From positions 186,001-250,000 of the forward strand of contig NZ_SSOC01000005.1 in assembly GCF_004801295.1 (NCBI RefSeq): a DNA stretch of 64,000 nt, in the 5' to 3' direction. This DNA is from Pseudothauera nasutitermitis. Its GTDB lineage: Bacteria; Pseudomonadota; Gammaproteobacteria; Burkholderiales; Rhodocyclaceae. The notes below the pieces were generated by a model. It made no database searches. It saw only the letters and a list, made by a program, of their open reading frames with translations, and was not told the DNA's origin. This document shows, piece by piece, positions 9,852 to 23,494 of this stretch. The translations under genes were made by a program, and so were the position numbers. Numbering within the stretch: position 1 is the stretch's first letter; the number at the start of each line of letters is the position of its first letter.

Positions 9852-10331
9852 TCAATGTCCACTCACGGCGATGCCGTCCGGCTGCAAGCGCAGCGCGGCG
9901 TGCTTGTAGGGCGTCAGGGTGATGGCCGGCCAGCCCGCCTCATTCACGTAGTTGGCGAAGGCGATCACCGCCACCGCCTTGCGGGTCCCGGCCGGCAGGT
10001 CGACCTCGAACGCGGGGTAGGCCGCCGGCACCTGCAGGGACGTCACCTCGATGCCGGTGGCCAGCGCTTTCTGCAGCGCGGCGCGCTGGCGGAACCACTC
10101 CGGCCCCGTGCCCGGCAGCTTCGCCAGCGCGGCGGCGTCGTGGATCGCCACCACGTCGAGCAGGGTGGCGCTGCCCTGGTTGGCGCCCGCATCGGCCGAC
10201 ACCCGCAGCGTGCGCAGCGCGGCGTGCGGCGGGCCGAAGCCGAGCAGGCCCTTCACCGCGTCGACGGTGCCGCAGCCGCCCAGCAGCGCCAGGCTGGCCC
10301 ACAGCAGGAATACGCGCACACGCCCGTTCAT
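9852..10331 (-). CDS. tssJ: Type VI secretion outer-membrane lipoprotein TssJ
   Basis: 159 residues with a lipoprotein signal: a hydrophobic stretch FLLWASLALLGGC and lipobox Cys at residue 20. The mature part has the transthyretin-like TssJ features, with alternating beta strands such as KAVAVIAFANYVNEAGWP near residues 110-130. TssJ is anchored in the outer membrane inner leaflet and caps the periplasmic part of TssM. The start overlaps the DUF4150 stop by four bases (ATGA). Its place between the PAAR-like gene and tssK fits an operon in which the spike genes and the membrane complex are made together. Confidence 0.93.
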   Translation of the reverse strand: MNGRVRVFLLWASLALLGGCGTVDAVKGLLGFGPPHAALRTLRVSADAGANQGSATLLDVVAIHDAAALAKLPGTGPEWFRQRAALQKALATGIEVTSLQVPAAYPAFEVDLPAGTRKAVAVIAFANYVNEAGWPAITLTPYKHAALRLQPDGIAVSGH

Positions 10332-10705
10332 GAGAGATAGATCACCTTGAACTGCCCCGGCGTGAGCGAGATGCCGACGCAGTTGGGCAGCAGGCCGTTC
10401 TGGCCGTTGATGGAGGTCAGGCGCGACCCGAACACGCAGCACAAGGCCACCTTGAAGCTGCCCAGCAGCGAGCGCTTGGGGCCCATGCACATGCCCGAGG
10501 CCACCCCCACGCCCACGTCGCCCCCGCTCAGCGCGCTGATGGTCAGCAGGTTCTCGGCCAGCCCGCCGCCCAGGATCACGTTGAACACCGTCGGGATGTT
10601 GGTCACCGAGAAATCCAGATTCACCTGCGGCACCGGCAGCGGGCCGACCACGCAGACGTCCGGGAAGCCGAGGTTGAGCACGCCGAGATTGTTGTTGACG
10701 AACAT
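10328..10705 (-). CDS. PAAR-like DUF4150 protein (T6SS spike tip)
   Basis: 125 residues. It begins MFVNNNLGVLNLGFPDVCVV and has the Pro- and Gly-rich pattern of DUF4150 proteins (VGPLPVPQVNLDFS), with regularly placed Cys residues (GMCMGPK, LCCVFG, LPNCVG). DUF4150 is regarded as a PAAR-like fold, a small sharp cone that sits on the VgrG trimer and punctures the target. No extra toxin domain is fused at either end, so any cargo must bind non-covalently or be carried elsewhere. Start 10705 is the ATG directly after the DUF3540 gene. Its neighbours (DUF3540, pentapeptide-repeat proteins, vgrG) form the spike and adaptor module of this T6SS. Confidence 0.85.
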   Translation of the reverse strand: MFVNNNLGVLNLGFPDVCVVGPLPVPQVNLDFSVTNIPTVFNVILGGGLAENLLTISALSGGDVGVGVASGMCMGPKRSLLGSFKVALCCVFGSRLTSINGQNGLLPNCVGISLTPGQFKVIYLS

Positions 10706-10709
10706 CGCC

Positions 10710-11261
10710 TCACCCCATGCTGATGCGTTCTGCATCGGCCTTGAGGTCGCGCTCCGCGGTGAGCAGCGCATCCTGGGCATGCAGCTTGAAGAGATGGCGC
10801 ACGTCGAGCAGGCAATGCCCGGCGCGGCTGAGCAGATGGCGCGTCTGCTGCACGAGGTTTTCCGCCACGGTGACGAACAGGTTGGGGGCCTGCAGCGTGA
10901 GGCTGCCGCCGAGCGTCATCAGGCGCGCCTCGCCGGCGCTCACCAGGGCGAGGCTGTCGACGGCATGCACGCTCACCTTGGCCTGGCGCAGCGCCAGGCT
11001 GCGGCAGCCCGGCACGCTCAGCGCCGCTTCCGCGCCGCCGCGCTCCAGCACGTGCAGCACATGGCAGGCCGCGCCTTCGCCCCGGCTGGCCAGCACCAGG
11101 TCGCCGGTCTGCAATTCGAGCAGGCAGCTCGCCGCGCGGCGCGCCTGGCGGCCGTTCGCCAGCAGGCAGGTGTCGGCGTCGAGCAGCATCGCCACGCGCG
11201 TCTCCTCCAGCCGCACGTCCTGCGCGCGTGCTTCCGCGGGCGCCGGGTTCACGGAATGCAT
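10710..11261 (-). CDS. DUF3540 family protein (T6SS spike-associated)
   Basis: 183 residues, soluble and beta-rich. The central part (about 35-130) has strand-like segments such as LLELQTGDLVLASRG and SLTLQAPNLFVTVAENL, resembling the OB-fold and beta-prism parts of spike proteins. The C-terminal 45 residues are helical (HLLSRAGHCLLDVRHLFKLHAQ). DUF3540 genes travel with DUF2169, pentapeptide-repeat and DUF4150 genes beside vgrG in T6SS loci, and that set is present here. The biochemical role is not established; a VgrG-to-PAAR or cargo adaptor is an inference from synteny. The start lies inside the end of the preceding gene (13-base overlap). Confidence 0.8.
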   Translation of the reverse strand: MHSVNPAPAEARAQDVRLEETRVAMLLDADTCLLANGRQARRAASCLLELQTGDLVLASRGEGAACHVLHVLERGGAEAALSVPGCRSLALRQAKVSVHAVDSLALVSAGEARLMTLGGSLTLQAPNLFVTVAENLVQQTRHLLSRAGHCLLDVRHLFKLHAQDALLTAERDLKADAERISMG

Positions 11262-12343
11262 GGCAGATCCTCCAGGGCAAGATTGGCTTGTTCGAGCGCC
11301 AGCAGGGCGGCGTCGGTGCCTTGCTGGCCGCGCCGCGCGGCGCCGCGCAGGCGCACCTTGTCCAGCGTGGCGCCGTGGAAGACGCTGCGTTCGAGCCGGG
11401 CGCCGGACAGATCGCTGTCGTTCAGGCGGGCATGCGCGAAGCGCACGTCGGAAAAATCCGCGCCCGCCGCCCGCAGGCCGGCCACTTCGCTTTTCTCCCA
11501 GCTGCCGCCGGCCAGGCGCGCGCCCTCGAAGCGGCAGTCGCGCAGGCGCGCGTTGTAGAACAGCGCGCCGGAAAAGTCGGCGCCGCGCGCGTCGCAGCCT
11601 TCCAGGCGCGCCGACAGCAGCAGGGCATTCGGCGCCTGCGCGGCGCGCAGGCAGGTGCCGGCGAAATGCGTCTGCATCAGGTTGCAGCCGGCGAGCACGG
11701 CGCCGGACAGATCGCTGCCCGCGAAGCGCCCTGCCTGCAACTGGCACAGCTCGAAGCGCAGGCTGCCCAGCGCCAGGCCGCGCCAGTCGTTGTTCATCAG
11801 CGCGCTGCGCTGCGCGCGCAGCCCTTCCACGGCGGTGGCGCGCAGGTCGGTATCGCTGAGCGCGGTCTGTGCCAGCGTGGCGCCGGCCAGCGAGGCCTGG
11901 CCCAGAGCGCAGCGCCACAGCACCGCGCTGTCGAGCCGGGCGCCGGGCAGCGCGGCGCCGTGCAGATCGCAGCCGGACAGCGCCACATGGCTCAACTGCG
12001 CGCCCTGCGCCCGTGCCGCCCGCAGGCTGCAATCGACCAGGGCCGCCTGCGACAGCGCCGCCGCCTCCATGCCCGCGCCATCGAGCATGCAGCGGATGAA
12101 CTGGGTGTGCGCCAGCGTGGCGCCGGCGAAGCGTGCGCCCGCCAGGCGGCAATCGATGAAGGTGGTGCGCGCCAGCGCGGTGCGCGACAGATCCATGCCG
12201 CCCAGTTCGCATTCGCGCAGCACGGCGCCGGCCAGCGACGCGCCGCGCAGGTCGATGGCGCGCAGGTCGGCCTTTTCCAACGGACGCTGGCGGCGGATGT
12301 GCCAGGCGATGGCGTCCAGGTCCACGAGTGCCGGGGCCTTCAT
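11249..12343 (-). CDS. Pentapeptide-repeat protein, T6SS-associated
   Basis: 364 residues, almost entirely tandem pentapeptide repeats of the A(D/N)LxG type from about residue 22 (LEKADLRAIDLRGASLAGA) to 335. This pattern folds as a right-handed quadrilateral beta-helix. The first 20 residues are charged, and the last 25 (ALLALEQANLALEDLP) look helical. Repeats are loose, with many Ala/Arg/Cys in place of the central Leu/Phe. The start overlaps the previous pentapeptide gene by four bases, so the two are translationally coupled. The likely place is near the VgrG/PAAR-like tip, as a scaffold for cargo; this is inferred from position and fold only. Confidence 0.88.
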   Translation of the reverse strand: MKAPALVDLDAIAWHIRRQRPLEKADLRAIDLRGASLAGAVLRECELGGMDLSRTALARTTFIDCRLAGARFAGATLAHTQFIRCMLDGAGMEAAALSQAALVDCSLRAARAQGAQLSHVALSGCDLHGAALPGARLDSAVLWRCALGQASLAGATLAQTALSDTDLRATAVEGLRAQRSALMNNDWRGLALGSLRFELCQLQAGRFAGSDLSGAVLAGCNLMQTHFAGTCLRAAQAPNALLLSARLEGCDARGADFSGALFYNARLRDCRFEGARLAGGSWEKSEVAGLRAAGADFSDVRFAHARLNDSDLSGARLERSVFHGATLDKVRLRGAARRGQQGTDAALLALEQANLALEDLPCIP

Positions 12344-15012
12344 GGCAGCCTCGCTTGCTGGTCGATGAAGGCGCCGGAACGCGCCGCGCCGCTGAAGTCG
12401 GCCTCGCTGGCGTCCATCTGCGCGAGTACGGCCTGGCTCAGCATGGCCTGCGAAAAATCGGCCTTGCGGCACATGGCCTGGAAGAAATCGGCGCGCGCGC
12501 CGCGCACGCGGCGCAGGCGGCTCTTGAGGAACAGCGAGCGGTACAGGCGCGCGCCTTCGAGGCAGGCGTCCGACAGGTCGGCCTCGCCGAAATCGCTTTG
12601 CGCGAACACCCCGCCGCCCAGGTCGGCGCCGCGCAGCGTGGCGCCGCGCAGGCCGCAGCGGCGCAGGCGCGCGCCGCGCAGATTGGCCCCCTGCCAGTCG
12701 GCCTGGCCGCCGTAGACGCCGGCCAGTTCCGCCCCGGGCCACTGCGACGCGGCCAGCGCCGCATCGAGCAGCACCGCGCGGGACAGGCGCGCGCCGCTGA
12801 AATCCGCCCCGCCGAGTTGCGCGCCCTGGGCCACCACCTGCTCCCAATGTACCTGCCGCCAGCGGCTGGCCGGCGCCCGCATGCCGGCGAACACCGCGCG
12901 CGCGGCGCGGCTGTCGTCGAGGCAGGCGGCGCTCAGGTCGATGCGCAGCGCGAGCAGGTCGTCGAGCAGCGCGCCGGCCAGCTTCGCCTCGCGCCACACG
13001 GCGTCGACAGCCTTGGCGCCGCGCAGGCTGGCGGCGCCGAAATCCGCGCCGGCCGCGCTGCTGCCGCTCAGATTGGCGCCGTCCAGGCAGGCCCCGGCCA
13101 GCCACGCGCCATCCAGGCGGGCGGCGGTGAGCACGGCCCCGGCGAGGTTGGCGCCGTCCAGGCGGGCGCCGCGCAGGTCGGCACGCTCCAGTTGCGTTTC
13201 GCGCAGGTCGGCGCCGCGCAGGTCCGCGTCGCGCAGATCGGCGCCGGCCAGATCGCGGCCGGCGAGCACGGTGCCCTCGCTCAGCCATTGCACCACCTGC
13301 CGCCCCAGCGCGCGCGCCGCTGCGGCGGGCAGTTCCGCCGGCAAGGTCGTGGGCGTCAACGCGGCGGCACGGGCGGCGCGCTTGAGGGATGGGGCCGTTG
13401 CGAGCGAGCGGGCGATCTGCGCGCGCTGTTCCGCGCCCACGCTGCCGGGCTGCGCCGCCTCGGCACGGTCGAGCGCCTCGGCCAGTTCGGCGGGCAGCTT
13501 CAGGTCTTGCGGGGCGACCAGATCGGTGGCTTCTTCGCGCGCCTGGTCCAGCACCCTGGCGGTCACCGCTTCCACCGTGGGCGCGGCCGGCGGCTGTGCA
13601 TCGGGGAACTGCTCGCGCAAGGTCTGCCGCAGGCGCTCCTGCTCCGCGGCCAGCCGCGCCTCGCCCTCGGCGCGCGCCTGCTCCGCCAGGGCCGTGGCCT
13701 GCGCATGCAGCTCGGCCAGATCGAATTCGCCTTCGGCCAGCGCATCGGGCGGAATGCCGGCGAGCGGGGGCGGCTCGACGCGCGGCGGGGTGTACCCGGC
13801 CGGCGGCATGAGCCCGCTGTGCGTCCAGAAATCGGCCATCTGCTCGTCGAGCAACTGCTGGCGTTCGGCCTGGCGCGCGGCGGCCTCGGCTTCGCGCTGC
13901 GCCATCCGGGCGGCGATCTCTCCGGCGCTGCGCGGCGGCGCCAGCTGCGCTTCGTTGAAGGCGTGCAGCGGCGCCGTCGCGGGGTCCAGGCGCAGGCCCA
14001 GCACGTCGCGGTAGTGGGCGAGCGGCCGCGCTTCGCCGATTTTTTCGTAGGCCACCATCAGCGCCTGCACGTCGAGCGCATCGCTGTCGTGCACCGGCGC
14101 TTCGCCGCGGAACACCAGCAGGCCGACGTCCTGGTCCGGGAAGAACCACACCGTGTCGCAGGCCAGGGCGATTTCCTCGGCGGCCTCGGCACCCTGCCCT
14201 TCGCGCAGCAGGAAGGCGCGCGCGCGCAGGCCCGGCAACTGGCCGCGCAGCAGCGCATGCCTGGGGTGCAGGCCTTCCAGGGTGTAGGGCTCGTCGCCGC
14301 GCAGCGCGCCGGCGAACTGCTGGTCGGCCGGCGCGCGGTTGAACAGGCCGCAGTCGAAGTCGCGCGGCAGGCCGGGAAAGTCCTCGGCCAGCCAGCGCTT
14401 GTCATAGGTGCCGCTGGCACGGCGCGCCTGTTCGGCATGCAGCAAGGCTTGCGGCGCGAAGCCGGCGGCGGGCAGCCGGCGGCGGCCCGGCATCACCGGC
14501 AGGCCGGGATACTCGATGTTGGGCATGGCGCCGGCGCGCGCGCGCAGCCAGGCGAGGCGTGGCAGGAAGGCACGGCCCTGCGGGTTGTCGTGCCCCGCGC
14601 CGCCGTAGGCGCGTTCCCAGGTAAGCGGCATTTCCTTGAAGGGCGCGGGCGCCTCCACGCACACGGCGGGCCAGAGGCGGCGCGTCCACGCGCGCTCGCC
14701 GATCACCTGCAGGCATTTGTCCACGGGGCCGCAGTGCAGGCGCACGCACAGCGCGGGCACCGCCTCGGCGGCATGGGCGCTGCCGCTGAGCAGCACCTCG
14801 CCGCGCGCCTTGGGCAGGATGTGCTCCAGCGCCAGGCCGGCGGGCAGCGCCGGCACCAGTTTGGCCCATTGCAGGTTGTCGGCGAGCAGCCGGTCGAGGG
14901 CGCCCGCGCCGAGCGGGAAGAAGCCCAGCGCCGCCACGGCGAGCCGGTGCGTGCCGCGGTACCGGTAGGGCCGGTCGAGCACGCCGAGGGTGAGCGGTTT
15001 GACGATCTTCAT
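12340..15012 (-). CDS. DUF2169 domain plus pentapeptide-repeat protein, T6SS-associated
   Basis: 890 residues in three parts. Residues 1-330 are a DUF2169 domain (start MKIVKPLTLGVLDRPYRYRG, then LTWERAYGGAGHDNPQGR and GTYDKRWLAEDFPGLP). Residues about 365-580 are a highly charged, Glu/Ala/Gln-rich helical linker with likely coiled coil. Residues about 585-880 are pentapeptide repeats (DLAGADLRDADLRGADLRET is the cleanest stretch). DUF2169 proteins are found next to vgrG and are thought to act as adaptors or chaperones for spike assembly. The gene starts 7 bases after vgrG and is coupled to the second pentapeptide gene. The size and the two folds in one chain suit a long scaffold on the spike. 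Confidence 0.88.
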   Translation of the reverse strand: MKIVKPLTLGVLDRPYRYRGTHRLAVAALGFFPLGAGALDRLLADNLQWAKLVPALPAGLALEHILPKARGEVLLSGSAHAAEAVPALCVRLHCGPVDKCLQVIGERAWTRRLWPAVCVEAPAPFKEMPLTWERAYGGAGHDNPQGRAFLPRLAWLRARAGAMPNIEYPGLPVMPGRRRLPAAGFAPQALLHAEQARRASGTYDKRWLAEDFPGLPRDFDCGLFNRAPADQQFAGALRGDEPYTLEGLHPRHALLRGQLPGLRARAFLLREGQGAEAAEEIALACDTVWFFPDQDVGLLVFRGEAPVHDSDALDVQALMVAYEKIGEARPLAHYRDVLGLRLDPATAPLHAFNEAQLAPPRSAGEIAARMAQREAEAAARQAERQQLLDEQMADFWTHSGLMPPAGYTPPRVEPPPLAGIPPDALAEGEFDLAELHAQATALAEQARAEGEARLAAEQERLRQTLREQFPDAQPPAAPTVEAVTARVLDQAREEATDLVAPQDLKLPAELAEALDRAEAAQPGSVGAEQRAQIARSLATAPSLKRAARAAALTPTTLPAELPAAAARALGRQVVQWLSEGTVLAGRDLAGADLRDADLRGADLRETQLERADLRGARLDGANLAGAVLTAARLDGAWLAGACLDGANLSGSSAAGADFGAASLRGAKAVDAVWREAKLAGALLDDLLALRIDLSAACLDDSRAARAVFAGMRAPASRWRQVHWEQVVAQGAQLGGADFSGARLSRAVLLDAALAASQWPGAELAGVYGGQADWQGANLRGARLRRCGLRGATLRGADLGGGVFAQSDFGEADLSDACLEGARLYRSLFLKSRLRRVRGARADFFQAMCRKADFSQAMLSQAVLAQMDASEADFSGAARSGAFIDQQARLP

Positions 15013-15019
15013 GGCCGCC

Positions 15020-17662
15020 TCACACCACCAGCATGACGACGGGAATCTGGATCGACGGCCCGCTGATGTCGATCCCCACGGTGCTCCCCCTGACCGACAG
15101 GGTGAGGCCCGAGCCCAGCACCTCGATGCGCGTCGACTCCCCGGTGACGTCCACCGAAGAGCTGTTGCCGGTGACGTTCACGTTGTTGCTGGAACCGGTG
15201 ACGTTCATCCCGTTGTGGCTGCCGGTGATGTTGGCCGAGACCGCCGCGCCGGTGAGCGAGACGTTGTTGACGCTGCCCGACAGACTCACGTCCGCGGCCA
15301 CGCCGAGCAGCGCGTTGGCGTTGCGCACGCCGGTGACGGAATTGCTGTTGCTCACCCCGATGGCATCGTTGCTGTTGCTCGCGCCGATGGCCGTGGAACT
15401 GCTCTGCGCGCCGATCGCCGTGAAGTTGTGGACGATCGCGTGCGTGCTGCGGTTGGTGGCCGTGCCGGTGACCGTGGAAGTGTTTTCCGAATCGGCATGG
15501 ATCGTCGACACGCTGGTGACCTTGCCGGAATGCGTGCTGGTGTTGTCCGACGTGCCGGTGACGGTGGTCGTCGAGGCCACGTCGCCGTGGTGCTCGCTGC
15601 GGCTGACGACCTCGCCGTGGAAGGTGCTGACGCTCTTGGTCCGCCCGTGCGCCACGCTGCTGCTGTAGGTGTCGCCATACACCACGCTCTTGCTGGCCTG
15701 CACGGCGGCCAGCGCGTCGGGGTCGCTCTGCTCGGTGCTGGCGAGCGCGGGATCGCACTTGCCGGTGACCGATTCGTGATAGCTGCGCCCGGTGGCCGAG
15801 AAGCTCTTGCTCTCCTTGCCCCAGGCGTAGCTGTAGTTGGAACCGTAGGCCCAGGATTCGCCGAGCATGCCCTGCTCTTTGTGCTCGGACTCGGCATAGC
15901 TGTAGTTGCCGCCGCGCGCATAGCCCGCGTCGCGGAACACCCCGCGTGCGTAGGCTTTCTCCACCAGGCCCACCGCCGCATCGACGGCGGCGCGCGACCA
16001 CGGCCGGCCGAAGCGCACGCTGCGGCTGTCGCCGTAGCTGGTGGAGTAGCTGTTGCCCACCTGGCTGTGCGCCGTCCAGCCCGAATCGGTGATGGTCCTG
16101 CTGCCGTCGGCCTGCACCATGTTCTGGATTTCCGGCAGTTCCGACTCGTCGTTCGCGCGCGTCACCCAGACGTTGCTGCCGACCTCCGGAATCGTCTGCA
16201 TGTGTGCGGCCAGCTTCACCCACACCGGCGGCGTATCCGGCGTATCGGTGGAAAAGCGCACGTACACGCCCTTGGCATGCAGCTGCGCCTGCACGCCCTG
16301 GGTGTCGGTCAGGGTCGAGCGGCCGCTGCTGAAGCCGTCGGGCACGTAGTAGGGCCAATCACGCACGGCATCGTCGCCGGCGGCGCTGGTCACCGTGGCC
16401 AGCACCACCCCCTGCTGGGTGTCCTGCAGGCCCGCGCTGGAGAGCAGGCCACCGGCCACGGTGGCGCCGAACTGGTTCTGGTATTCGCCGTCGAGCGTGG
16501 AACTGTGCTGCACCTGGGTGAGCACGAAGGCGCGGCCGTCCAGTTCGGGGCGCACGCCGGGCTGCGCCGCCACCATGCTGAAACGGTGGCCGGCGCGCAG
16601 GAAGGGGCAGCGGCTGGCGCCGTCGAGCCGCAGGCTGGCGCTGCGCAGGGCCTGGTCGGTGGCCTGCGCGTAGTGGCGCACTTCGCTGTCGCAATAGCCG
16701 TACTGCACGATCTTGTACTGGTGGAAGGGCAGTTCGCCGGTATCCGGCCCGCTGTCGGCGCGGAAGTTCGCGTGGCCGGCGAGCGGTTCGGCGGGCTGGC
16801 GCGCGTCCCAGGCTTCGCGCTGCAGGGTGAACACGCCGCGCACTCCGGTGCTCGCCATCGACTGCTGGTAGGCGTATTGCGTGACGACGTCCGCTTCGTG
16901 CAGGCCGAGTTCGTCCTCGCCGCTGAAGGTGTAGCGCAGCGGTGCGTCGCCGGGACGCGCGGCGGGATAGACGGCGCGGTTGGCGAACACCATGCGGTGG
17001 CCGCCGGCGCGATGCTCGAAGTAGAAGAAGATGTGCGCCCTGGCCATCAGGCGGTGGATGAAATCCAGGTCGGATTCGCCGGCCTGCATCCAGTCCTGGG
17101 TGCGCGTGGAAGCCAGGTTGTCCTCGCCCGCCAGGCCGTCGAAGTTCGCCTCCACGCGGTGCTCGCGGCACAGGGTGGCGAGCGCCTCGCGGATATTCAT
17201 CTGGCGCAGGATGCGGTAGCGGTTGGTGAGCGTCATGCGCCAGGCCATCGGCCGCATGGTGATGTGGTAGACGCCGGGCCGGTCGATGGCGAAGCTGGCG
17301 ACGATACCGTTGAACAGCGCGAAGGATTGCGCTTCGCCGCCGCCGTCCAGCGCCTTGAGGAAGGCCTGGTGGGCGAGCTTGCGGTCGTCGAACTGCACGC
17401 CGGCGACGCCCACCGTGATGGGCCGGCCGATGATCTGCGAGAAGTCGATGGCCTCGCCCGCCGGATCGCTGTCGCCGTGCAGTTCGAGCTGGTATTCGAA
17501 AAGGTCGGAGACGCTTTCCTGCCCCTGGAAGCTCACCAGGCGGAAGACGTTCTCGCCCATCACCGTGCCCCGGGGCATCTCGATGCGGCAATGCTGGAAC
17601 AGCAGCGGCTGGTCGAGCGGGGCGACGCGGGTGGTGGCGACGGCTTCGAGCGGGGCGTTCAT
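15020..17662 (-). CDS. vgrG: Type VI secretion spike protein VgrG/TssI with long beta-repeat C-terminal extension
   Basis: 880 residues. Residues 1-525 are the VgrG core with the gp27/gp5-like fold: FQGQESVSDLFEYQLELHG, GRPITVGVAG, the DWMQAGESDLDFIHRLMARA signature, and WVKLAAHMQT with WVTRANDESELPEIQNMV at the start of the needle. After this comes about 355 residues of extension. The first part is Tyr/Ser-rich with repeated SYAxSxxK-like motifs. The rest (about 650-870) is low-complexity Val/Thr/Ser/Asn repeat, for example NGMNVTGSSNNVNVTGNSSS. That pattern suggests an extended trimeric beta-helix needle; I see no known enzyme motif. The C-terminus is hydrophobic (IQIPVVMLVV) and may seat the PAAR-like tip. 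The start overlaps tssG by four bases. Confidence 0.93.
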   Translation of the reverse strand: MNAPLEAVATTRVAPLDQPLLFQHCRIEMPRGTVMGENVFRLVSFQGQESVSDLFEYQLELHGDSDPAGEAIDFSQIIGRPITVGVAGVQFDDRKLAHQAFLKALDGGGEAQSFALFNGIVASFAIDRPGVYHITMRPMAWRMTLTNRYRILRQMNIREALATLCREHRVEANFDGLAGEDNLASTRTQDWMQAGESDLDFIHRLMARAHIFFYFEHRAGGHRMVFANRAVYPAARPGDAPLRYTFSGEDELGLHEADVVTQYAYQQSMASTGVRGVFTLQREAWDARQPAEPLAGHANFRADSGPDTGELPFHQYKIVQYGYCDSEVRHYAQATDQALRSASLRLDGASRCPFLRAGHRFSMVAAQPGVRPELDGRAFVLTQVQHSSTLDGEYQNQFGATVAGGLLSSAGLQDTQQGVVLATVTSAAGDDAVRDWPYYVPDGFSSGRSTLTDTQGVQAQLHAKGVYVRFSTDTPDTPPVWVKLAAHMQTIPEVGSNVWVTRANDESELPEIQNMVQADGSRTITDSGWTAHSQVGNSYSTSYGDSRSVRFGRPWSRAAVDAAVGLVEKAYARGVFRDAGYARGGNYSYAESEHKEQGMLGESWAYGSNYSYAWGKESKSFSATGRSYHESVTGKCDPALASTEQSDPDALAAVQASKSVVYGDTYSSSVAHGRTKSVSTFHGEVVSRSEHHGDVASTTTVTGTSDNTSTHSGKVTSVSTIHADSENTSTVTGTATNRSTHAIVHNFTAIGAQSSSTAIGASNSNDAIGVSNSNSVTGVRNANALLGVAADVSLSGSVNNVSLTGAAVSANITGSHNGMNVTGSSNNVNVTGNSSSVDVTGESTRIEVLGSGLTLSVRGSTVGIDISGPSIQIPVVMLVV

Positions 17663-18735
17663 GCGGCCTCCATCCGCGGTTCATGGGCGCCGACACGGAA
17701 ACGCAGCGGCGCCGTGGCACGGCCGCTCAGCCGGGCGGTCTGGCCGAGGCGCAGCCCGGGGCCGTCGCCGGCGAGCCGGGCGGGCGGCACGCTGGCCGGG
17801 TCGACGTGCAGGTACACCTCGCAATCGAAGCGGCGATCGAGCAGCAGGCGGAGCATCGCCACGAGGCCGCGATGCGCGGGCCCCGGCAAGTCTTCGCCGG
17901 GGCGCGCCGGGCGCAGCGGCAGCAAGGCGCACACGGCGTCCCAGGGCAGTGCGTCGACCACCAGGCGCACCGCGGCGCGCGCATCCCAGGTACGCTGGCC
18001 AAGCAGGCTGACCTGGCCCAGCGCATGGTTGCGCCGGCCCAGCGCGAGGCGGTCGGCGTCCTCGATGGCGCGCCAGCTCCCCACCAGGGTTTCCAGCCGC
18101 GCGGCCACGCCCAGATGGGCGGACAGCACCTGGCCGACGACGGCGGCGCTCCTGCGCACGTTGGCGAGCTGGCCGGCGAGCCCCAGCCAGGCGCGCAGCG
18201 GCAGCGGCAGCTGGGCCTGCTGCGCCGGCAGCGCCAGGCCCATCAGCGCGGCGAGCTGGCCGGCATAGCGCGTCCTGTCCGGTTCGGCCGGATCGAGCGC
18301 GCGCAGCGCGCCGATCTTCAGTTCGTGGCGCAGCACATGCACGCGCTGGTTGAACACGTCGAAAAAGGCCGCCATGGCGCGCCCGCCCATGCGCTCCTGC
18401 TCGCGCACCCATTCGAGGAAGGGCCCTGGCAGCGGGCCCAGTTCGCTCGCCAGGCAGTAGTTGGGCGTGTGCACCTCGATGCGCACCGGCTTGCGCCCGT
18501 ACCCCCCTGCGTTGCGGAAGGCCGGCATCGGACGCACCCTGAGCACCCGCGTGACCTCGCGCCCGGGGAAGGCGGCGCGCAGGTCGGCGCGAAAGCGCAG
18601 GCGCTCGCCGACCGGCCAGGCACCGCCGCGCCGCTGGCGCAGCAGGCGCACCAGCTGGAACACGTTGAAGCGGGCGTACTGCTCGCCCACCACGCGCTTC
18701 AGAGCAGAACCTGGTTGCCCGCCAGCGGAGGCCAT
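17659..18735 (-). CDS. tssG: Type VI secretion baseplate protein TssG
   Basis: 358 residues. Typical features are the N-terminal FNVFQLVRLLRQ helix, RVRPMPAFRNAGG in the first beta region, and the NYCLASELGPLPGPFLEWV motif followed by FFDVFNQRVHVL. TssG pairs with two copies of TssF and with TssE to make each wedge of the cytoplasmic baseplate. The gene begins 37 bases inside the 3' end of tssF and ends overlapping vgrG, so synthesis of the wedge and the hub is likely coupled. Length and motif order match the family, with no sign of damage. Confidence 0.93.
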   Translation of the reverse strand: MASAGGQPGSALKRVVGEQYARFNVFQLVRLLRQRRGGAWPVGERLRFRADLRAAFPGREVTRVLRVRPMPAFRNAGGYGRKPVRIEVHTPNYCLASELGPLPGPFLEWVREQERMGGRAMAAFFDVFNQRVHVLRHELKIGALRALDPAEPDRTRYAGQLAALMGLALPAQQAQLPLPLRAWLGLAGQLANVRRSAAVVGQVLSAHLGVAARLETLVGSWRAIEDADRLALGRRNHALGQVSLLGQRTWDARAAVRLVVDALPWDAVCALLPLRPARPGEDLPGPAHRGLVAMLRLLLDRRFDCEVYLHVDPASVPPARLAGDGPGLRLGQTARLSGRATAPLRFRVGAHEPRMEAA

Positions 18736-20513
18736 TCCTTCACCACTCCTTTCACGTTCTTCATGTGCAGGCGCAGCTGCACCACGGTATTGACGCTGGC
18801 GTACAGCGCGAAGAAGTGCCGCAGCACGGCGGCGAACAACACGGCGCTGGTCTCCTCGAAACGGTCGGAATCCAGGGCCAGGTCAATCTCGCAGCCCTGC
18901 ACGTAGCCGCGCCGCCCCATGCGGCCGTGCCAGCGCAGCAGCGGCCGCGAGTCGAGCGCGTGGATGCCGTCGATGGCGCGGCGACCGAGCGTGCTGGCCG
19001 GCCCCACGTGCATGCGCAGGACCTCCTTCAGCGCGGCCAGCGCCTGCGGGCCGCTGGTGAGCGACAGGTGATTGAGGGCGAGCTGCGAGGCCAGCAGCCA
19101 GGGCCGCGCGCCGGTCATCGGCGGCGTCTGGTGCGCGCTGGGCTTGCCGAGCACGCGCAGGGCGGTCACCGGGGCCGCGCCTTCGATCTCCAGCAGGTCG
19201 CCGATGCGCAGGCGTTCGGGCATGCGGCGGTTGGTGCACAGCGCGCTGCCGCCGATCACGTCGTCGGCGGGGGCGCAGAGTTCGAAGTGCGCGTCGAGGA
19301 AGGACACATACAGCTCGGTGCCGCCGATGCGCGCGCGCGGGGTCGCCTCGCGGCGGGTGAAATAGAAATAATCCTGCAGCTCGATGTGCTGGAAGCCATC
19401 CATGGAGAAATACGGCACCAGCCGGCGCGGCGCGCTGCCGGCGCGCACGGCGTCCAGGCGCTCGATGCGGTAGATCTCGCAATTGGCATGCTGGGTGGCG
19501 TCGCCGGTGAGGCGGTATTCGTAGCGGCTGTGGTCCAGCGTGAGCGGATCGATGCGCTGGCTGTAGAGATTGATCAGCGGCACGCAGTTGGTGCGCAGCA
19601 GCGCCGGCGACAGGCGCAGGCCCGGATCGGGCGGCACGTCGAGCAGGAAGAGCAGGTCGACGGCCGGCGCATCGGCCTGGATCTCCAGGGCGACGTCGAA
19701 GAACAGGAATTTCTCGGGGAAGGCGAAGTATTCCTGCAGGATGCGGAAGGCCGGATGGGCCTGCGGATGGGCGGGCAGCGCGGCCTCGTCGTCCTCGAAG
19801 CCCAGCCAGTGCAGCGCTTCGTCGGCCAGGGCGCGGACCTTGTACGAACCGCCCTCGCCCGGCTCCGCCACCGCCAGTCCGCGCAGGTGGGCGCCGAGCA
19901 GGTGATGCAGGCGATGCGCCGGGCCGCCCTCCGGGTTGAGGTGGAAACGCAGCTTCTGCGGCCGTGTCTGGTCGAGCAGCCCGTGCCCCTGCTTGAGCAG
20001 GCGCACCTTGAGCACGCCGCGCACCTCGCCATCCTTCCCGGCCAGCCCGGGATAATCGTCCGGCGAGACGATCGCCAGTTCGCCGACCTGCAGCGGCCAC
20101 AGCGCGGTCTCGAAGCAGGTGCGCAAGCGGCAGGCGAACACGCCGCCCTGATCGCCCCGGACGTTGGCCCGCACGCTGCGGCCGCGCTCGATCACCGCCA
20201 TGCCGTCGGGCTGCACCTCGAATTCGGCCACCATCATGCAGGGCAGCGGCGCTTCGAGATGCGGGTAGAGGTCGGCCAGCAGCGCATTGGGCAGGTCCGC
20301 CTGATCGACTTCGAGCTGGTGGCGCAGGCGTCCGGTGAGATAGGCGAAGGACTGCATGAGCAGCTCGACCTGCGGGTCCTGGGACCTGCCCCGGTGGATG
20401 CCCAGCGCCTGCGCCTGATCGGGATAGTCCTGGGCGAATTCGCTGGCCTCGTCGCGCAGCGCGGCGAGTTCCTGCTGGTAGGCATCCTGGAGGCGGCCGG
20501 CGGCGCTGTGCAT
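18699..20513 (-). CDS. tssF: Type VI secretion baseplate protein TssF (VasA/ImpG family)
   Basis: 604 residues, as expected for TssF. The N-terminus has the family signature YQQELAALRDEASEFAQDYP, then SQDPQVELLMQSFAYLTGRL and LADLYPHLEAPLPCMMVAEF. The C-terminal part includes FALYASVNTVVQLRLH, another conserved TssF segment. The protein is a major part of the baseplate wedge and contacts the VgrG hub. Downstream it overlaps tssG by 37 bases; upstream, tssE ends 12 bases away. No membrane segments or signal peptide are present, consistent with a cytoplasmic assembly. Confidence 0.95.
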   Translation of the reverse strand: MHSAAGRLQDAYQQELAALRDEASEFAQDYPDQAQALGIHRGRSQDPQVELLMQSFAYLTGRLRHQLEVDQADLPNALLADLYPHLEAPLPCMMVAEFEVQPDGMAVIERGRSVRANVRGDQGGVFACRLRTCFETALWPLQVGELAIVSPDDYPGLAGKDGEVRGVLKVRLLKQGHGLLDQTRPQKLRFHLNPEGGPAHRLHHLLGAHLRGLAVAEPGEGGSYKVRALADEALHWLGFEDDEAALPAHPQAHPAFRILQEYFAFPEKFLFFDVALEIQADAPAVDLLFLLDVPPDPGLRLSPALLRTNCVPLINLYSQRIDPLTLDHSRYEYRLTGDATQHANCEIYRIERLDAVRAGSAPRRLVPYFSMDGFQHIELQDYFYFTRREATPRARIGGTELYVSFLDAHFELCAPADDVIGGSALCTNRRMPERLRIGDLLEIEGAAPVTALRVLGKPSAHQTPPMTGARPWLLASQLALNHLSLTSGPQALAALKEVLRMHVGPASTLGRRAIDGIHALDSRPLLRWHGRMGRRGYVQGCEIDLALDSDRFEETSAVLFAAVLRHFFALYASVNTVVQLRLHMKNVKGVVKEWPPLAGNQVLL

Positions 20514-21556: not shown

Positions 21557-23494
21557 TCAGGCGGGCAGATCCGCCACCAGGCGGATGGAAGCGGTGAGTT
21601 CTTCGAGCTGGAAGTGCGGCTTGAGGAACACGGTGGCCTTGTAGGCGCCCGGTTCGCCCGGCACGTCGACCACCACGATGGACGCCGAGCGCAGCGGAAA
21701 GGCGGACTTGACGTCCTGCGAGGCGTTGTCGTCGAGCAGCACGTACTGCGAGATCCACGCATTGAGGAAGGTCTCGACGTTGGCGCGGGTCAGGAAGCCG
21801 CCCACCTTCTCGCGCACGATCACCTTGATGTAGTGGGCGAAGCGCGACGCGGCGAGGATGTAGGGCAGGCGCGAGGACAGCGCGGCGTTGGCGTTGGCGT
21901 CGGCGTTGATGTACTTCTTCGGCCTGTTGGTGGTCTGCCCGCCGAAGAAGGCTGCCTTGCCGCTGCCCTTGCAGTGGCACAGGGTGATGAAGCCGAGGTC
22001 GTTCAACTCCTTCTCGCGGCGGTCGGTGATCGCCACCTCGGTCGGGCAGAACAGTTCCTTGATGCCGTCGTCGCCGCCGCTGGCGAAGGTGTAGATGGGC
22101 AGGCCCTCGACCAGGCCGCCGCCTTCCACGCCGCGGATCGCCGCCGTCCAGCTGTACAGCGAGAAGGCGTTGGTGATGCGCTCGGCGAGGAAGTAGGCCG
22201 CGTTGCCCCAGAGGAAATGGTCGCTCTCGGGCACGTTGTCCGCGGCGAGCACCTGTTCCTCGAAACCGAAGCCCTCGGCCGGCAGGGTCTTCTCGCCGTA
22301 GGGCAGGCGCAGCAGCACGCGCGGCAGCGCCAGCGAAACGTAGCGCGAGTCCTCGGTGTCGCGGAATTCCACCCACTTCGCCAGATCGGCGCCTTCGAAG
22401 ATCTTGGCCAGGTCGCGCGGCTTGGCCAGATCCGCAAAGCCCTTCAGGCCGAACAGTGCCGGCGAGGCCGCCGACAGGAACGGCGCATGCGCGGAAGCGG
22501 CCACCCCGGAAATCTTCTCCAGGAAGCTCATGTCGGACGCGCCCGGGCCGAGTTCGTAGCCGCCGAGCAGCAGGCTGTAGGGCGAACCGCCGTAGGTGCC
22601 GTACTCGGCTTCGTAGATCAGCTTGAACAGCTTGCTCTGGTCGAATTCCACCGCCTTGTCCATGTCATCCTGAAGCTCCTTCAGGGTGGCGTTGAACACG
22701 CGCAGCTTCAGGCGGGTACCGGTCTCGCTGCGCGACACCAGGTGGAACAGGCCGCGCCAGGTGGCTTCCATCTCCTTGAACTTCGGCGCATGCATGACGG
22801 CCGAGAGCTGCGCGCTCAGCGCGCGGTCGATCTCTCCCACGGCGGCATCGATGTACAGCGCCGCCCCCCTGCCCTGGACGCCCGCCGCCTTGATCACGGG
22901 CGCGACACGCTCGTTGAAGGCGGCGGCAAGGTCTTTCCCGAAATCGTCTCCCTTTTCCGGAAACCCACTCTTGAGCTTGGTGGCGAGATCATCCGCGCTC
23001 AGCGACTTCGAGGAATCCTCCAGGCTGCGGACCACCTCATCCAGCACCTGCGCGGCGTCATTGCTGACCTCCGCGCGGGCCTGCGCCTCCCGCAGCACCT
23101 TGCGCCGCCCGAACTCGGTACTGAGCACATCGACCTTGCCGACCACGCGGATCGGCTCGAAGTCGCCCAGGCTCTCGAACACGATGGCGCCCGCGAGCTT
23201 GCCCGTGCCGCCCGGCAGGACGTTGTCGACGTCCTTCAGGGCGACGCGCGGCGCGCTCTGCTTGAGCACCTCGTTGAAGTTGTCGCGGTCGATGTCGACG
23301 ATCTTGCGTTCCTTGATGTCGGGAGGAACCGCCGGGCTGGCGTCCGCATCGCGGTCGCCGCTCAGGTCGGCGAAGATGCCGACGATGAAGGGCAGCTCGC
23401 GCTTCTCGATGGCGCCATTGGTATGCACGTCGTAGGTGATCCGCACACGCGGCGGACGCACCCGCAACAGCTTTTTCTGCACGCTTTCACTCAT
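21557..23494 (-). CDS. Fused type VI secretion sheath protein TssB-TssC
   Basis: 645 residues holding both sheath subunits in one frame. Residues 1-135 match TssB/VipA: SVQKKLLRVRPPRVRITYDV, the ELPFIVGI motif (33-40), KIVDIDRDNFNEVL and FESLGDFEP. Residues about 215-640 match TssC/VipB: EIDRALSAQLSAVMHAP, WRGL (246-249), AEYGTYGGSPYSLLLGGYEL and a C-terminal beta region. A 75-residue Asp/Glu/Lys-rich helical segment joins them (about 136-212). In most T6SSs these are two adjacent genes. No stop, overlap or reinitiation site is visible at the junction. TssB/TssC form the contractile sheath around the Hcp tube. Start 23494 lies after GAGGCGAGC and is the first gene after the sigma-54-like promoter. 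Confidence 0.93.
   Translation of the reverse strand: MSESVQKKLLRVRPPRVRITYDVHTNGAIEKRELPFIVGIFADLSGDRDADASPAVPPDIKERKIVDIDRDNFNEVLKQSAPRVALKDVDNVLPGGTGKLAGAIVFESLGDFEPIRVVGKVDVLSTEFGRRKVLREAQARAEVSNDAAQVLDEVVRSLEDSSKSLSADDLATKLKSGFPEKGDDFGKDLAAAFNERVAPVIKAAGVQGRGAALYIDAAVGEIDRALSAQLSAVMHAPKFKEMEATWRGLFHLVSRSETGTRLKLRVFNATLKELQDDMDKAVEFDQSKLFKLIYEAEYGTYGGSPYSLLLGGYELGPGASDMSFLEKISGVAASAHAPFLSAASPALFGLKGFADLAKPRDLAKIFEGADLAKWVEFRDTEDSRYVSLALPRVLLRLPYGEKTLPAEGFGFEEQVLAADNVPESDHFLWGNAAYFLAERITNAFSLYSWTAAIRGVEGGGLVEGLPIYTFASGGDDGIKELFCPTEVAITDRREKELNDLGFITLCHCKGSGKAAFFGGQTTNRPKKYINADANANAALSSRLPYILAASRFAHYIKVIVREKVGGFLTRANVETFLNAWISQYVLLDDNASQDVKSAFPLRSASIVVVDVPGEPGAYKATVFLKPHFQLEELTASIRLVADLPA

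What the first reader, a model, noticed from the sequence alone, without database searches (positions are those of the whole stretch)
15020..16090. VgrG carries a 355-residue Val/Thr/Ser/Asn repeat extension
Seen: after the VgrG core the protein has a Tyr/Ser-rich part and then a long low-complexity repeat with recurring SNN, VTG and GSxNxV units, ending in a hydrophobic tip. No enzyme motif is visible. Inference: the trimer would make an extra-long beta-helical needle with a sticky Asn/Ser/Thr surface. It could set the reach of the weapon or present cargo.
Basis: partly seen in the sequence, partly recalled or inferred. Interest (0 to 1): 0.5.

Follow-up and report, generated by a model that had tools for sequence, protein, structure and literature searches.

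The report
Needle of a bacterial injection machine
The long repetitive tail of this protein is most likely the three-sided needle of a bacterial type VI injection machine; long needles of this type are known, but this family appears to build each layer from ten and then nine amino acids instead of the usual eight.

Summary
The tail exists where reported (VgrG residues 525-880), but it is not a uniform 355-residue repeat. A conserved Tyr/Ser-rich neck (525-650) is followed by about 8 ten-residue repeats (651-730), 16 nine-residue repeats (731-874) and a hydrophobic tip. No catalytic domain was detected. The VgrG sits in a complete Class III Tvp module (TvpAB, TvpB, DUF3540 TvpC, DUF4150 tip) of a main T6SS cluster. 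Long beta-prisms in such VgrGs were published in 2026 (PMC13373197), so the needle reading is mostly known. What seems new is the layer size: all 41 VgrGs examined in this clade show period 9 distally, and ten-residue layers, where present, lie mostly nearer the base. In 19 comparison VgrGs no period 9 or 10 was seen; 8 was commonest. TvpC proteins of the same operons favour 8. Relatives often differ by whole repeats. The needle is not exceptional in number of layers. Trimers could not be modelled; two single-chain predictions were weak, though one placed a strand every 10, then every 9 residues. Best reading: a trimeric prism with 10- then 9-residue layers, assembled by the Tvp module. Cargo and reach are untested. 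New variant of a known kind.

The parts
15020..17662 (-). VgrG/TssI, 880 aa; the only PF05954 match in the genome
   Evidence: ORF; Pfam Phage_GPD E 1.8e-42; one PF05954 hit in the own genome
16502..17521 (-). gp27-like hub domain (residues 48-387)
   Evidence: Pfam PF05954, above its cut-off
16091..16465 (-). presumed OB-fold region (residues 400-524), conserved in relatives
   Evidence: conserved in alignments A1 and A2; no Pfam hit there, so the fold is inferred
15713..16090 (-). Tyr/Ser-rich neck (residues 525-650); begins with two octad-like units and contains a helical insert
   Evidence: alignment; composition; short runs of period 8 near the root in some relatives
15947..15994 (-). predicted helix in the neck (residues 557-572)
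   Evidence: AlphaFold2 single chain, pLDDT about 68-69 in this stretch of an otherwise low-confidence model
15473..15712 (-). proximal shaft: about 8 ten-residue repeats (residues 651-730; the first lacks the glycine)
   Evidence: period 10 in sliding windows; layer HMM; Gly every 10 residues
15041..15472 (-). distal shaft: 16 nine-residue repeats, consensus [VIL]TGxSxxxx (residues 731-874)
   Evidence: period 9; layer HMM; 27-bp tandem repeat at 15166-15232
15023..15040 (-). hydrophobic tip VVMLVV (residues 875-880)
   Evidence: sequence; tips of the 41 proteins listed
12340..15012 (-). TvpAB: DUF2169 plus pentapeptide repeats
   Evidence: Pfam
11249..12343 (-). TvpB: stand-alone pentapeptide-repeat protein
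   Evidence: Pfam; start inferred
10710..11261 (-). TvpC: DUF3540 protein, 183 aa
   Evidence: Pfam DUF3540 E 3.1e-21; start inferred
10328..10705 (-). DUF4150 / Tox-PAAR-like (PIPY-type) tip protein, no fused toxin; start inferred
   Evidence: Pfam PF13665; the only match in the genome
17659..18735 (-). TssG
   Evidence: Pfam
18699..20513 (-). TssF
   Evidence: Pfam

Best explanation
The tail is the needle of the T6SS spike. Three VgrG chains would wind into a gp5C-like triangular beta-prism in which each repeat is one layer. The layers change size along the shaft: about two octad-like units at the root of the neck, then about 8 ten-residue layers, then 16 nine-residue layers, then a hydrophobic tip. 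The tip would be capped by the stand-alone DUF4150 protein. [quoted passage not shown] The tail has no detectable catalytic domain; on firing it is pushed out with the Hcp tube. Shown here: the repeat structure and its order, its conservation, frequent whole-repeat length changes, and the gene context. Inferred: trimerisation, one repeat per layer, a shaft wider than in octad VgrGs, and the handover mechanism.
For: Period 10 (windows from about 601 to 750), then 9 (721-880), in the window protein; best z at most 2.9 in windows within residues 1-600. Period 9 distally in 41 of 41 clade members, 39 of 39 without the two that contain unknown residues. Layer HMM on 39 of 41: 796 nonads and 165 decads; decads are 132 of 312 early layers (ranks 2-9) and 3 of 312 of the last 8; mean decad position proximal in 31 of the 32 proteins with decads. 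Comparison VgrGs: period 9 or 10 in 0 of 19 (L108 is cut short, L111 doubtful), a run of period 8 in 9 of 14 genome VgrGs. TvpC, n=36: lag 8 z 6.1, lag 9 z 0.8. Of 90 tail gaps of 5 or more residues in 52 pairs, 45 are multiples of 9 (27 of 9, 11 of 18); window versus L062 differ by one 20-residue gap in the decad region. Gene order complete in 33 of 40 named loci. AlphaFold2 of 641-880: strands start every 10, then mostly every 9 residues. Published Tvp assembly and long prism; gp5C has 8 residues per turn and gp12 about 6.
Against: No trimer model could be made. AlphaFold2 on residues 396-880 with 35 sequences gave mean pLDDT 48 and pTM 0.26. The 641-880 model reached only 59 and 0.49: 74-82 over model residues 151-220, but 44-60 in most of the ten-residue part. 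Fold searches with it gave no match at E <= 0.001 in PDB or BFVD, and a profile of the tail matched no PDB chain. The HMM allowed only layers of 8, 9 or 10 and was started from the expected motif. Pooled z-values are inflated by relatedness. An aligner tends to place repeats in register, so gap lengths are biased towards whole repeats, and still 45 of 90 gaps of 5 or more are not multiples of 9 (6 of these are multiples of 10). Among the 17 pairs at or above 74% core identity, three of nine non-zero net length differences fit neither unit (17 once, 125 twice). Three proteins (L074, L076, L095) have a decad among the last 8 layers; in L095 it is the only one.
Confidence: 0.72

Rival explanations
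1. An ordinary long Class III Tvp VgrG needle, already described; the 9/10 period only reflects small bulges on the standard eight-residue prism and has no consequence for width.
For: Class III VgrGs are already known to have long beta-prisms (PMC13373197). Neighbouring genes match Class III. The root of the neck is octad-like.
Against: The period holds over about 24 repeats, lag 8 is depleted (z -7.8) in the clade's distal shafts, and four VgrGs next to DUF2169 genes on plasmids (L118-L121) show no 9 or 10 period.
Confidence: 0.17
2. The repeat region is a single-chain beta-solenoid (for example 18 residues per coil, as in an RTX roll) or a flexible low-complexity linker, not an intertwined prism.
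For: The AlphaFold2 single chain forms one strand per repeat. DUF3060 shows a weak match (E 0.0048-0.0085). Lags 18 and 27 are also enriched in most of the proteins tested.
Against: Single nine-residue gaps are the most common long gaps (27, against 11 of 18 residues), which a two-strand or three-strand coil should tolerate poorly (inference). The calcium motif GGxGxD is absent from the sequence. The tail occupies the needle position of a VgrG and ends in a hydrophobic tip near a DUF4150 gene.
Confidence: 0.07
3. The tail is itself a toxin, for example a cryptic hydrophobic C-terminal peptide as proposed for S. marcescens VgrG1.
For: A hydrophobic C-terminus and the published hypothesis for a Class III VgrG.
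Against: No immunity-type gene lies between vgrG and tvpAB in the window: only 7 bases separate them; a gene elsewhere is not excluded. No effector domain was found. The hydrophobic end is also what cap binding needs, as in gp5 and EAEC VgrG.
Confidence: 0.04

Closest known systems
Class III Tvp-associated VgrG (S. marcescens VgrG1; PMC13373197)
   Same: Same gene set (TvpAB, TvpB, DUF3540 TvpC, DUF4150 cap), long C-terminal shaft without effector domain, hydrophobic end
   Different: Here the VgrG lies in the main cluster between tssG and tvpAB, is the only VgrG found in the genome, has no gene between itself and tvpAB (S. marcescens has vai1 directly downstream), and has 10- and 9-residue repeats. 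The layer size of the S. marcescens protein was not measured here.
T4 gp5C triple-stranded beta-helix (VxGxxxxx)
   Same: Val-x-Gly repeat at the needle position, hydrophobic tip that binds a cap, similar number of layers (T4: 23 strands)
   Different: Eight residues per repeat in gp5C; ten then nine here. T4 narrows through smaller external side chains and two methionines that break the octapeptide near the tip.
Octad VgrGs of related genomes (L104, L105, L107, L110, L112, L114)
   Same: Long repetitive shafts, 204-276 residues
   Different: Period 8; hubs lie on the other side of a fully supported but long branch
RTX nine-residue repeats
   Same: Repeat length of nine
   Different: No GGxGxD calcium motif; different protein context

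Membership tests
VgrG / TssI | gp27-like hub (Phage_GPD) | tested here: met
   Pfam E 1.8e-42, 146 bits against cut-off 30.1
VgrG / TssI | NCBIfam TIGR03361 / TIGR01646 curated cut-offs | tested here: not met
   117.2 against 186.35 and 92.7 against 121.8 bits; matches end near residue 389. A divergent VgrG, not a typical member of these two models.
VgrG / TssI | OB-fold after the hub | tested here: inconclusive
   Region conserved but no Pfam hit
VgrG / TssI | encoded in a T6SS cluster with a tip (PAAR or PIPY) gene | tested here: met
   TssG and Tox-PAAR-like; TssF, gp25-like TssE, Hcp, TssB-TssC, TssK, TssL and TssM domains
Class III Tvp system | DUF2169 protein with C-terminal pentapeptide repeats | tested here: met
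Class III Tvp system | separate pentapeptide-repeat TvpB | tested here: met
Class III Tvp system | DUF3540 TvpC | tested here: met
Class III Tvp system | DUF4150 cap with P(I/V)P(Y/F) motif | tested here: inconclusive
   Domain found; the sequence reads PVPQ at the likely motif site, so the last position deviates from the published motif
Class III Tvp system | long VgrG beta-prism | tested here: inconclusive
   24 periodic layers by HMM; length inferred, no trimer model
gp5C octapeptide needle (VxGxxxxx) | eight-residue repeat | tested here: not met
   Period 10 then 9; octad-like only at the root of the neck
gp5C octapeptide needle (VxGxxxxx) | trimeric interdigitated strands | not testable with these tools
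   No multimer prediction available
Specialised (effector-bearing) VgrG | C-terminal enzymatic or toxin domain | tested here: not met
   No Pfam, NCBIfam or PHROGs domain above cut-off in the tail. The PADLOC library was not searched.
DUF3060 | Pfam gathering score 23.1 | tested here: not met
   16.2-17 bits
RTX | GGxGxD nonapeptides (motif recalled) | tested here: not met
   Not present in the sequence as read

The most novel reading that the evidence does not exclude
Needle thickness in contractile injection systems can be set by the number of residues per layer. This VgrG clade builds a stepped trimeric prism with 10-residue layers near the base and 9-residue layers to the tip, wider than the common octad needle, and lengthens or shortens it by whole layers. 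The octad-type TvpC mimic of the same operon must therefore pass the cap to a prism of different cross-section.
Probability: 0.5. Interest if true: 0.6.

Novelty: new variant of a known kind. Interest (0 to 1): 0.42.

Why it matters
If correct, it gives a simple sequence code for needle width and length in a T6SS spike, which bench work could test by counting layers. It also shows a Class III Tvp VgrG that can be the only VgrG of the cell (here and in 3 of 13 relatives by PF05954, one of them an 82% complete genome), unlike the published cases. It raises a concrete question: how can a cap be handed from an octad-type prism (TvpC) to a nonad prism (VgrG)? It could be of use for protein design, where gp5C is already used as a trimerisation rod.

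Tried and rejected
Close phage relatives: two scans of viral contigs gave no confirmed relative, and the phage records gave one weak hub match. An effector domain in the tail: none. A solved homologue of the tail: none. AlphaFold2 on 396-880 was too poor to use; fold searches with the 641-880 model were not significant. A search of 300 genomes of the order with the tail alone found 15 with matches, the own genome included; two of them (G182, G236) were weak and not pursued. Whether spike length follows any other gene was not tested.

Literature: no paper on nine- or ten-residue VgrG layers was seen. These searches are limited: 311 papers held two of the six terms and only the best 15 were listed, none of which mentions VgrG. 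The main text of PMC13373197 has no 'octapeptide', 'periodic', 'tandem repeat' or 'residues per'. Only open-licence papers are held, and supplements could not be read.

Errors of mine: the DUF3540 query was out of frame, so that column is void; it was corrected. Coordinates were wrong (stop codons); one search repeated it with corrected ones. An earlier count said that the TssB-TssC fusion lies beside the VgrG in 14 of 14 genomes; it is on the same contig in 11 of 14.

Rows dropped: L091 and L092 (unknown residues); L071 and L085 (no boundary motif found) from the pair comparison; L083 (short N-terminus), L108 and L111 from the tree. Six octad VgrGs pooled were chosen from 19 comparison proteins because they show sustained repeats; the unselected map of all 19 (from about residue 400 on) is.

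Full report
Observation. The window's VgrG is an 880-aa ORF at 15020-17662 on the minus strand. The reported stretch is its last 356 codons plus stop. Only the hub is recognised by Pfam (Phage_GPD, residues 48-387); nothing in the tail passes a cut-off in Pfam, NCBIfam or PHROGs, and DUF3060 is a sub-threshold hit. A phmmer search of PDB sequences finds VgrG hubs (7q5p, E 4e-14) but nothing credible for the tail (best E 2.1).

Anatomy. Sliding-window autocorrelation of the whole protein gives a best z of at most 2.9 in windows within residues 1-600, period 10 in windows between about 601 and 750 (z 5.0-7.7) and period 9 from about 721 to the end (z 6.8-9.0). Glycines follow this: positions 663, 673, 683, 693, 703, 713, then 733, then 751, 760, 769 and so on to 814, every 9. 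In residues 656-874, 17 of 23 Gly-Gly spacings are 9, 10, 18 or 20, against a mean of 2.6 and a maximum of 9 in 5000 shuffles. A small layer HMM, which allows layers of 8, 9 or 10 only, parses 651-730 as 8 ten-residue units and 731-874 as 16 nine-residue units with consensus [VIL]TGxSxxxx; the first ten-residue unit (LAAVQASKSV) lacks the glycine and may not be a true layer. Upstream, 525-650 is a Tyr/Ser-rich neck that starts with two octad-like units and carries a predicted helix.

Relatives. A search of 300 genomes of the order with the tail gave matches in 15, the own genome included. A scan of the named genome collection with a profile of residues 396-640 gave 40 loci, from Rhodocyclales, Lysobacterales, Rhodanobacteraceae, Chitinibacteraceae, Burkholderiaceae, Oxalobacteraceae and others. 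With the window this makes 41 proteins; several are near-duplicates (L096/L097, L068/L069, L089/L090). All 41 show period 9 in the distal shaft, 39 of 39 if the two with unknown residues are left out. In the 39 proteins parsed by the HMM there are 796 nonads and 165 decads; 32 of 39 have at least one decad. Decads make up 132 of 312 early layers (ranks 2-9) but 3 of 312 of the last 8, and their mean position is proximal in 31 of 32. Exceptions: L074, L076 and L095 have a decad among the last 8 layers, in L095 its only one. The hubs of 40 clade members and 17 comparison VgrGs separate on one fully supported branch; the program warns that long branches meet there.

Controls. In 14 VgrGs from related genomes and 5 from plasmids, 4 of these beside DUF2169 genes, no period 9 or 10 is seen (0 of 19, residues from about 400 on). 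L108 is cut off by a contig end and L111 contains unknown residues and looks out of frame late, so 17 are informative. Nine of the 14 genome VgrGs show a run of period 8, as do four of the five plasmid ones; L118 shows periods 7 and 12. Pooled over six octad VgrGs picked for visible repeats, lag 8 gives z 29 and lag 9 z -1.4; for 39 clade shafts lag 9 gives z 57 and lag 8 z -7.8. The 36 TvpC proteins (35 named loci plus the window), over a stretch that I chose, give z 6.1 at lag 8 and 0.8 at lag 9. These z-values ignore relatedness and serve only to rank the lags.

Length changes. Among 52 pairs with at least 60% core identity, 90 gaps of five or more residues lie in the tail, and 45 of them are multiples of nine (27 of 9, 11 of 18, 4 of 27, one each of 36, 45 and 54); 45 are not, 6 of these being multiples of ten. 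Gaps in the core are at most 11 long. The closest relative, L062, lacks exactly 20 residues, within the decad region. Aligning periodic sequences favours such gaps. Net length differences need no alignment: among the 17 pairs at or above 74% core identity eight differ by 0, four by 9, one by 18, one by 20, one by 17 and two by 125. Single-repeat changes argue for one repeat per layer and against a solenoid with two or three strands per coil (inference).

Structure. AlphaFold2 could only be run on single chains. Residues 396-880 with 35 sequences gave pLDDT 48. Residues 641-880 with five close relatives gave pLDDT 59, with 74-82 over model residues 151-220 but only 44-60 in most of the ten-residue part; strands start every 10 and then mostly every 9 residues. 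This agrees with one strand per repeat but says nothing about trimers; fold searches were not significant. From T4 gp5C (110 A, 5 plus 18 strands, 8 residues per turn; passages of PMC3004832) one layer rises about 4.8 A. The 24 periodic layers would then be about 115 A, and with the neck about 158 A (my estimate).

Context. The order tssF-tssG-vgrG-DUF2169/pentapeptide-pentapeptide-DUF3540-DUF4150 is complete in 33 of 40 named loci; the seven incomplete patterns fit the seven loci that are short because the contig ends (lengths). This is the Class III Tvp module of Monlezun et al. (PMC13373197; abstract, sections 8-12, the first of two parts of section 13, and passages read). There, TvpC, TvpAB, TvpB and the DUF4150 cap form a pre-complex, VgrG1 replaces TvpC, and the VgrG1 beta-prism is predicted to be 186 A long against 81 A for VgrG2. 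Sachar et al. (PMC11883445; abstract, start of the introduction and section 4 read) propose that DUF2169 proteins chaperone VgrG-PIPY (DUF4150) spikes. So a long needle beside these genes is known. In contrast to the published cases, which had at least two VgrGs, the window's genome has one VgrG and one DUF4150 match, plus one canonical PAAR match on another contig. Three of 13 relatives (G159, G215 and the 82% complete G320) also have a single PF05954 hit; the others have 2-12, some of them fragments or weak hits that may be phage hubs.

Judgement. The needle reading is well supported and mostly already published for this class. The layer size and its ordered change (10 then 9) were not seen described in the literature that could be searched, which excludes most subscription papers and all supplements and, all but the first 15 of 311 listed papers. 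Whether it makes a wider, stepped prism is an inference that one trimer prediction or structure could settle. No evidence was found for cargo binding, special reach or toxicity.

Noticed in passing
21557-23494 (-): A single 645-aa ORF carries both TssB (VipA) and TssC (VipB) domains, a natural sheath-protein fusion. A TssB-TssC frame of 634-845 aa is found in 14 of 14 genomes with this VgrG type, on the same contig as the VgrG in 11 of 14; some other T6SS copies in these genomes have separate genes and others are also fused. Two paper searches listed no title or abstract about a natural fusion (2 of 2 papers, 12 of 13 papers).
   Followed up: partly
15365-15445 (-), residues 740-766: The junction between ten- and nine-residue repeats holds a conserved motif ([IV]VHNFT, AIGAQSSST, AIGASNSND) recognisable even in distant relatives such as L079.
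   Followed up: no
15473-15712 (-): The ten-residue repeats are rich in histidine (6.7% of residues 641-730), mostly just before the conserved glycine; metal or anion binding is possible but untested.
   Followed up: no
L084 and L101 (Dyella), shaft: The largest layer counts, 40 and 39; the units of L101 are near-identical (TQGTVTNTT type), those of L084 were not printed.
   Followed up: no
L061 (G253): The vgrG of this relative is broken into two frames and its DUF4150 match is also split between two frames.
   Followed up: no
15166-15232: 27-bp tandem repeat (2.5 copies, 76% match, 19% indels) equal to nine codons, which suggests growth of the shaft by duplication of whole units.
   Followed up: no
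10328-10705 (-): The DUF4150 cap reads PVPQ where the published motif is P(I/V)P(Y/F) (sequence, motif).
   Followed up: no
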